A DNA stretch of 64,000 nt from Burkholderia lata. GTDB taxonomy: Bacteria > Pseudomonadota > Gammaproteobacteria > Burkholderiales > Burkholderiaceae. The notes below the pieces were generated by a model that made no database searches, had not been told where the DNA came from, and saw nothing but the letters and a program-made list of their open reading frames with translations. Position numbers and translations under genes: made by a program. Of this stretch, positions 38,271-39,300 are shown piece by piece. The stretch's first letter is position 1. Each line of letters begins with the position of its first letter. The stretch spans positions 1,364,001-1,428,000 of the forward strand of contig NC_007510.1 of the NCBI RefSeq assembly GCF_000012945.1, read 5' to 3'.

Positions 38271-39300
38271 ATGAAATTGATGCAAACCGCGATTGCCGGC
38301 CTGGCTGGCGCGCTTTTCGCCGTCGCCGCTCACGCTGCCGACATCACGGGCGCAGGCAGCACGTTCGCGATGCCGATCTATACGAAATGGGCTGCTGACT
38401 ACCAGCAGACCGGCGGCGCGAAGGTCAACTACCAAGGTATCGGCTCGTCGGGCGGCCTGAAGCAGATCGTCGCGAAGACGGTCGATTTTGCCGGTTCGGA
38501 CGCTCCGCTGAAGGATGACGAGCTTGCAAAGGAAGGCCTGTTCCAGTTCCCGACGGTGGTCGGCGGCGTGGTGCCGGTCGTCAACGTGCCGGGCGTGAAG
38601 GCCGGTGAACTGACGCTGTCGGGCCCGGTGCTCGGCGACATCTACCTCGGCAAGATCAAGAAGTGGAACGACCCGGCGATCGCCGCGCTGAACCCGAAGG
38701 TCAAGCTGCCGGACACGGACATCGCCGTGGTTCGCCGCGCTGACGGCTCGGGCACGAGCTTCATCTGGACGAACTACCTGTCGAAGGTCAACGACGAGTG
38801 GAAGTCGAAGGTCGGCGAAGGCACGACGGTCAACTGGCCGACGGGCACGGGCGGCAAGGGCAACGACGGCGTCGCAGCCTTCGTGCAGCGCCTGCCGGGC
38901 GCAGTCGGCTACGTCGAATGGGCGTACGCGAAGAAGAACAACATGGTCTACACGGCCCTGAAGAATTCGACGGGCACGGTGGTCGAGCCGAAGACGGAAA
39001 CGTTCAAGGCCGCTGCTGCAGGCGCGAACTGGTCGAAGTCGTTCTACCATGACGAACCAGCCGGGCAAGGAAGCATGGCCGGTCGTCGGCGCGACGTTCG
39101 TGCTGCTGCACGCAAAGCAGGACAAGCCGGAGCAGGGCGCGGAAACGCTGAAGTTCTTCAGCTGGGCGTTCAAGAACGGCGAGAAGGCTGCTGACAGCCT
39201 CGACTACATCTCGCTGCCGCCGGCAGTCGAAGTGGAAATCCGCAAGCAGTGGAAGGCGAAGGTGACGGACGCTTCGGGCAAGTCGGTCGCCGCCGAGTAA
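38271..39300 (+). pseudogene. pstS: Phosphate-binding periplasmic protein PstS, disrupted by frameshift
   Basis: PstS captures phosphate for the PstCAB importer. The frame from 38271 has a signal peptide (MKLMQTAIAGLAGALFAVAA, cleavage after AHA) and normal PstS sequence: ITGAGSTFAMPIYTKWA, IGSSGGLKQIVAKTVDFAGSD and RADGSGTSFIWTNYL. At SKSFY (39030-39047) it shifts frame and reads unrelated residues to a stop at 39194. The true C-terminus (TNQPGKEAWPVVGATFVLLH to KSVAAE) continues in the next frame to 39300. Family sequences read about SFYQILTNQPG; loss of five bases (GATCC) at 39049/39050 would explain it exactly. A sequencing error is possible. Together the two parts are full length (about 342 aa). 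Confidence 0.88.

What the first reader, a model, noticed from the sequence alone, without database searches (positions are those of the whole stretch)
38271..39300. pstS is split by an apparent 5-base deletion beneath an intact Pho promoter
The reading frame is normal PstS up to SKSFY (39030-39047), then shifts, while the true C-terminus continues in the next frame to 39300. Inserting GATCC at 39049/39050 would restore the family sequence SFYQILTNQPG. The rest of pstCAB-phoUBR is intact. If real, loss of PstS would be expected to derepress the Pho regulon; such mutations occur in host-adapted and laboratory-adapted strains. If not, it is a sequencing error.
Basis: partly seen in the sequence, partly recalled or inferred. 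Interest (0 to 1): 0.85.

Follow-up and report, generated by a model that had tools for sequence, protein, structure and literature searches.

The report
Broken phosphate-binding gene with intact backup
The main phosphate-binding gene of this soil bacterium is cut in two by five missing bases that the relatives examined still have, but an intact second copy sits alone on another chromosome and may do its job, so this is a recent strain-level break or a sequence error and not a new kind of system.

Summary
The pstS gene of the pst-pho operon (38271-39300) reads as normal PstS for 259 residues and then leaves its frame; the true C-terminal piece continues in the +1 frame from 39049. All 109 relative loci compared have five more bases at 39049/39050, and 63 of 64 genus genomes have a full-length pstS in one open frame. 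The Pho-box stretch is conserved and pstC, pstA, pstB, phoU, phoB and phoR are intact. Neither piece has a private residue against 12 relatives: the break is very young, or an error. Size, contig number and N50 match B. lata type strain 383, a soil isolate of 1958. Loss of PstS1 therefore need not mean loss of PstS. Best reading: a real, recent null of PstS1 with PstS2 wholly or partly covering. Host adaptation is not supported.

The parts
38165..38214 (+). cluster of three Pho-box-like 18-mers (38165, 38176, 38197)
   Evidence: score 12, 11 and 11 of 14; the only forward-strand sites of 11 or more in the 64-kb window (two on the reverse strand, 18879 and 47224); each within 2 mismatches in 19, 18 and 19 of 19 relatives; 38150-38270 is on average 97.4% identical in 19 of 19 relatives, against 76.6% in the 17 of 19 that match 37830-38100, some of these over 50-100 bases only
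38271..39194 (+). pstS1 reading frame: 259 normal PstS residues, then 48 out-of-frame residues and a stop
39049..39050 (+). point where the window has five bases fewer than every relative locus compared
   Evidence: 109 of 109 relative loci; no slide ambiguity in 29 of 29 tested
39049..39300 (+). detached C-terminal piece of pstS1 in the +1 frame (83 aa from an ATG; no clear ribosome-binding sequence before it, judged by eye)
39395..40381 (+). pstC, intact, the only true PstC of the genome
   Evidence: NF008435 611 bits over cut-off 502; other hits of a whole-genome search are 27-33% identical
40378..41271 (+). pstA, intact
   Evidence: NF008430 537 bits over cut-off 439
41287..42135 (+). pstB, intact
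   Evidence: TIGR00972 396 bits over cut-off 343
42154..42858 (+). phoU, intact
   Evidence: TIGR02135 244 bits over cut-off 130
42884..43591 (+). phoB, intact
   Evidence: TIGR02154 352 bits over cut-off 296
43649..44968 (+). phoR, intact
   Evidence: TIGR02966 452 bits over cut-off 334

Best explanation
The pst-operon pstS (pstS1) of B. lata 383 carries a real, very recent five-base deletion that removes the last quarter of the protein. The product keeps its normal N-terminus and the phosphate-contact motifs but ends in 48 foreign residues instead of the C-terminal 85, so it is most likely unstable and non-functional (inferred). Phosphate binding for the single PstCAB transporter is then supplied, wholly or in part, by the intact orphan paralogue PstS2 on the 1.395-Mb third replicon (inferred). 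Pho control would stay at least partly phosphate-responsive, and Pst function would depend on that replicon.
For: Break private to this genome among 109 relative loci and 63 of 64 genus genomes that could be judged. Of 8 indels shared against two relatives it is the only one deep in an ORF: four lie outside mechanically chosen ORFs and three near ORF starts. It is five bases long with no repeat ambiguity, which is not the usual single-base or homopolymer error (the error profile is recalled). PstS2 is full length, over the PstS equivalog cut-off (525 against 339), has all four phosphate-contact motifs checked, has dN/dS 0.07-0.13 against 7 other orphan copies, and is 88% identical to intact PstS1 of a relative. 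Synonymous divergence between the own copies is 0.21-0.32 over codons 41-259, 0.59 just after the break, and saturated or 2.5 at the two ends, while pstS1 of three relatives shows no such contrast; the same kind of contrast is seen in 7 of 7 other pairs. This means the two genes have exchanged sequence. Only one PstC exists for both.
Against: No reads or second isolate of the species could be examined, so an error is not excluded. PstS2 has no Pho-box-like site above 10 of 14 in the stretch scanned upstream, so it may not be induced on starvation. There is no direct evidence that PstS2 docks on PstCA or is expressed. Structure prediction was uninformative for both proteins.
Confidence: 0.5

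Rival explanations
1. The five missing bases are an error of the deposited sequence or a mutation of the cloned or stored stock that was sequenced; the natural strain has an intact pstS1.
For: No private residue in 259 N-terminal or 82 C-terminal residues against 12 relatives (12 of the 80 named loci), and own-versus-relative nonsynonymous/synonymous ratios equal those among the relatives (0.292 against 0.299 and 0.793 against 0.774): the gene was under normal selection until essentially the present. Private to one genome.
Against: Five bases without a repeat or homopolymer is an unusual consensus error (recalled); none of the other seven shared indels in the 59-63 kb compared lies deep in an ORF. 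Not an evident paralogue mis-join: the window's segments 38390-39010 and 39120-39270 both fall among relatives' pstS1 in the trees, not with pstS2 (the bases next to the break were not in the trees).
Confidence: 0.27
2. The break is real and the strain is functionally PstS-negative, with a constitutively derepressed Pho regulon, because PstS2 is not expressed enough; growth rests on Pit-type transporters.
For: pst mutations switch the Pho regulon on constitutively (passages of PMC2695467 and PMC11208175). PstS2 lacks a good Pho-box cluster. Four PHO4/Pit-family genes are present, and expressing E. coli PitA relieved the growth defect of a Caulobacter pstS mutant while the regulon stayed on.
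Against: Orphan copies are intact in many relatives and under purifying selection, so PstS2 is presumably expressed in some condition; no expression data were seen.
Confidence: 0.18
3. PstS1 is still made from the broken gene, by ribosomal frameshifting or as two pieces that assemble.
For: The C-terminal piece lies in the +1 frame directly at the break and starts with an ATG.
Against: None of the 109 relative loci has this arrangement; no clear ribosome-binding sequence before 39049 (by eye); the second piece would lack the N-terminal signal; no known frameshift motif was recognised by eye, and none was searched for with a tool.
Confidence: 0.03

Closest known systems
PstS of the pstSCAB-phoU-phoBR operon (NCBIfam NF008171 / TIGR00975; solved examples 1ixh and 5wnn)
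   Same: N-terminal 259 residues, promoter, operon order and phosphate-contact motifs
   Different: last 85 residues out of frame here
Multiple PstS paralogues in one genome, such as the three PstS of marine Synechococcus WH8102 (PMC10846223, abstract seen) and PstS1 and PstS3 of M. tuberculosis (search listing)
   Same: more than one PstS in a genome; PstS2 here is likewise an extra binding protein
   Different: here the extra copy is an orphan on another replicon, the own two copies are 87% identical in DNA over the aligned 968 columns, and the middle is gene-converted
Loss-of-function pst mutants with a constitutive Pho regulon (Serratia 39006, PMC2695467; Caulobacter, PMC11208175; passages seen)
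   Same: disrupted pstS with intact phoBR
   Different: those are constructed or selected mutants; here an intact paralogue remains

Membership tests
Functional PstS (phosphate ABC transporter binding protein), applied to pstS1 of the window | score over the equivalog cut-off | tested here: met
   418.6 against 339 with the N-terminal ORF alone, so the score does not reveal the break
Functional PstS (phosphate ABC transporter binding protein), applied to pstS1 of the window | one continuous reading frame over the whole family profile | tested here: not met
   positions 1-271 and 266-345 of 346 lie in two frames; 63 of 64 relatives have a continuous one
Functional PstS (phosphate ABC transporter binding protein), applied to pstS1 of the window | phosphate-contact motifs | tested here: met
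   four of four motifs present in the N-terminal piece; which residues contact phosphate is recalled from the E. coli structure
Functional PstS (phosphate ABC transporter binding protein), applied to pstS1 of the window | binds phosphate and feeds PstCAB | not testable with these tools
   needs protein or strain
Functional PstS, applied to the orphan pstS2 (L117 8772-9794) | score and full profile coverage | tested here: met
   524.7 against 339, profile positions 11-345 of 346
Functional PstS, applied to the orphan pstS2 (L117 8772-9794) | lies in a pst operon | tested here: not met
   no PstC, PstA, PstB or PhoU at E 1e-20 in the 19 kb around it; the same in 9 of 9 other second-copy loci; the operon locus L127, a control, gives all four
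Functional PstS, applied to the orphan pstS2 (L117 8772-9794) | purifying selection | tested here: met
   dN/dS 0.07-0.13 against 7 copies from 6 other genomes (the row for G009 failed in the script and G022 was not included)
Functional PstS, applied to the orphan pstS2 (L117 8772-9794) | Pho-box promoter | tested here: inconclusive
   best site 10 of 14 in L117 8300-8830, a level reached at 22 places in the 64-kb window, the three pstS1 sites included
Recent disrupted allele (pseudogene) | disruption confirmed by independent sequence | not tested
   no reads or second isolate of the species available here

The most novel reading that the evidence does not exclude
In this strain the phosphate sensor-transporter of chromosome 1 has come to depend on a binding protein encoded by an orphan gene on the third replicon (a facultative replicon in the complex), so that replicon would carry the only intact PstS. 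More generally, in about a third of Burkholderia species (22 of 64) an orphan pstS is kept similar to the operon copy by gene conversion of its middle while both ends diverge, which would make the pair a natural system for interchangeable binding proteins of one transporter.
Probability: 0.35. Interest if true: 0.5.

Novelty: new member of a known kind. Interest (0 to 1): 0.3.

Why it matters
By its size and contigs this is the species type strain, so a broken pstS1, real or erroneous, would propagate into annotation and into any phosphate or Pho-regulon study of B. lata. The more interesting part is the orphan paralogue: 22 of 64 relatives have a nearly full-length second copy at 80% or more identity, outside a pst operon in 10 of 10 loci read, the own one included, with a gene-converted middle in the own pair and 7 of 7 others. 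It makes a simple, testable prediction about which PstS feeds the transporter and about dependence of phosphate uptake on the third replicon.

Tried and rejected
Host adaptation: rejected as unsupported, since the strain match is a soil isolate. Mis-join of paralogues: not favoured, the window's two segments tested both group with relatives' pstS1. Decay of an old pseudogene: rejected, no private residues. Repeat slippage as the cause: no slide ambiguity in 29 of 29 relatives. A second Pst transporter: not found, other PstC-like hits are 27-33% identical. Structure prediction of the broken ORF gave mean pLDDT 31, but the intact paralogue with the same alignment depth gave 32, so neither model says anything and no fold search was made. 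The tree of the middle segment does not separate pstS1 and pstS2 fully, and the one-clade test does not reject a single pstS2 clade (p 0.32), so the conversion argument rests on synonymous divergence, not on the trees. Rfam gave nothing upstream of the orphan. Paper searches: 0 papers hold both 'Burkholderia lata' and 'pstS'; in the listings (titles and starts of abstracts, capped lists) I saw none about this break; the library lacks most subscription papers, and the two papers on the third replicon by Agnoli and colleagues were seen only as references.

Full report
What is there. In the window, pstS of the pst-pho operon starts at 38271, matches PstS through residue 259 (base 39047), then runs 48 unrelated residues to a stop at 39194; the real C-terminus is in the +1 frame, in an ORF 39049-39300. 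NCBIfam's PstS model recognises both pieces, positions 1-271 and 266-345 of 346. The genes after it, pstC, pstA, pstB, phoU, phoB and phoR, each score over at least one curated cut-off for their name. Upstream lie three Pho-box-like sites at 38165, 38176 and 38197, the only forward-strand sites scoring 11 or more of 14 in the window, with two more on the reverse strand elsewhere. They lie in a stretch on average 97.4% identical in 19 of 19 relatives, against 76.6% in the 17 of 19 that match the intergenic DNA further up, some only over 50-100 bases.

Is the break private? A gapped comparison with 109 relative loci (80 named from Burkholderia, Paraburkholderia and Caballeronia; 29 unnamed from the genus; the two sets overlap) shows five more bases at 39049/39050 in 109 of 109; the own second copy has them too, and the own locus, fetched twice, does not. 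Searching 64 other genomes of the genus with an intact relative's protein, 63 have a full-length pstS match in one open frame; G046 has only fragments at contig ends. Of the 80 named loci 79 are open for 342 aa or more and L077 for 320 aa, counted from an internal matched start.

Which strain. The genome has 8,676,277 bases in 3 contigs, of 1,395,069 and 3,587,082 and, by difference, 3,694,126 bases. PMC7372133 (passages) lists 8676277 bases, 3 contigs and N50 3587082 for B. lata LMG 22485T = 383T, soil, Trinidad and Tobago, 1958. This is a match of numbers; no name came with the window.

Real or error? Against two close relatives, which cover 62,583 and 59,130 bases of the window with 64 and 58 indels, 8 indels are shared. 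By a mechanical ORF choice four of the 8 lie inside an ORF: one 4 bases from an ORF's upstream end (5321), two 87 and 105 bases from the start of ORFs that I did not check as genes (5530, 19002), and 39050, which lies 779 bases into a family-confirmed gene. The difference has no slide ambiguity in 29 of 29 relatives, so it is not a homopolymer or tandem-repeat event. There is no sign of decay: no private residue in either piece against 12 relatives (12 of the 80 named), and the ratio of nonsynonymous to synonymous differences is the same for own-versus-relatives as among relatives (0.292 against 0.299, N piece; 0.793 against 0.774, C piece). The break is thus younger than almost all of the strain's separate history, or is an artefact; the sequence cannot decide. 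I lean to real because a five-base consensus error outside a repeat is unusual (recalled).

The second copy. A PBP_like_2 search of the own genome finds another full-length PstS on the 1.395-Mb contig. It scores 525 against a PstS cut-off of 339 over profile positions 11-345, is 88% identical to intact PstS1 of a relative, has the four contact motifs checked, and no pstC, pstA, pstB or phoU lies within its 19-kb locus. Only one true PstC exists in the genome; four PHO4/Pit-family genes are present. In the genus 22 of 64 relatives have a nearly full-length second copy at 80% or more identity; G046 has one in pieces and G016 one at 59%. I read the surroundings of 9 second copies from 8 of those genomes besides the own one; 10 of 10 have no pst genes nearby, while the operon locus L127 shows all four. 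dN/dS of the own orphan against 7 of these is 0.07-0.13. Its scanned upstream stretch (L117 8300-8830) has no Pho-box-like site above 10 of 14, a score reached at 22 places in the window, the three pstS1 sites included.

Gene conversion. Between the own two copies synonymous divergence is 0.21-0.32 over codons 41-259, 0.59 in the first bin after the break, saturated at codons 24-40 and 2.5 at the far end, while pstS1 against pstS1 of three relatives shows no such contrast (0.06, 0.10 and 0.10 at the far end). In 7 of 7 further pairs, from 6 genomes, the middle is 0.02-0.46 and the far end 0.6-2.2; the contrast is weakest in one pair of G058, where one middle bin is 0.46 and the far end 0.60. 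The broken contigs of G046, at residues 92 and 264 of both copies, fit a collapsed near-identical middle. The trees alone do not prove it.

How it most likely works. Shown: PstS1 loses its last 85 residues; PstS2 is intact and conserved; one PstCAB is present. Inferred: truncated PstS1 is non-functional, PstS2 can dock on PstCA because it is nearly identical to PstS1 over the middle of the protein, and the Pho regulon is therefore not simply derepressed. The general rule that pst lesions mimic phosphate starvation is from PMC2695467 and PMC11208175 (passages). The smallest contig is taken to be the third replicon, pC3 in the complex; that pC3 is facultative and carries virulence and stress traits is from PMC3983312 (passages), on B. 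cenocepacia H111 and the complex; its identity here is inferred from size.

Verdict. A correct observation, with a partly correct interpretation. It is a strain-private break of a known gene, of modest interest in itself; the orphan, gene-converted PstS2 is the part worth following.

Noticed in passing
L117 (G000:C1) 7609-8730, upstream of the orphan pstS2: A conserved upstream stretch of about 1.1 kb accompanies the orphan pstS in several of 9 other loci compared (not G022; only a short match in G055) and in different surroundings; it holds two small ORFs with third-position-biased substitutions, 104 aa on the minus strand (7628-7942) and 85 aa on the plus strand (8103-8360), without a Pfam match over its cut-off or an Rfam match.
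   Followed up: partly
G046 contigs C55, C41, C72, C35: Both pstS copies of this relative stop at contig ends at about residues 92 and 264, as expected if a near-identical middle collapsed in assembly.
   Followed up: no
L118 7263-10192 (G000:C3:1210619-1213011): Two tandem long PBP_like_2 proteins (455 and 479 aa) beside a 2363-aa ORF, distinct from PstS (about 30% identity over parts).
   Followed up: no
G058:C1:39994-40986 and G058:C3:127516-128508: One relative has two orphan pstS copies besides the operon copy, on two contigs of 3.9 and 1.3 Mb.
   Followed up: partly
window 18879, minus strand: An isolated Pho-box-like site scoring 12 of 14, not examined.
   Followed up: no
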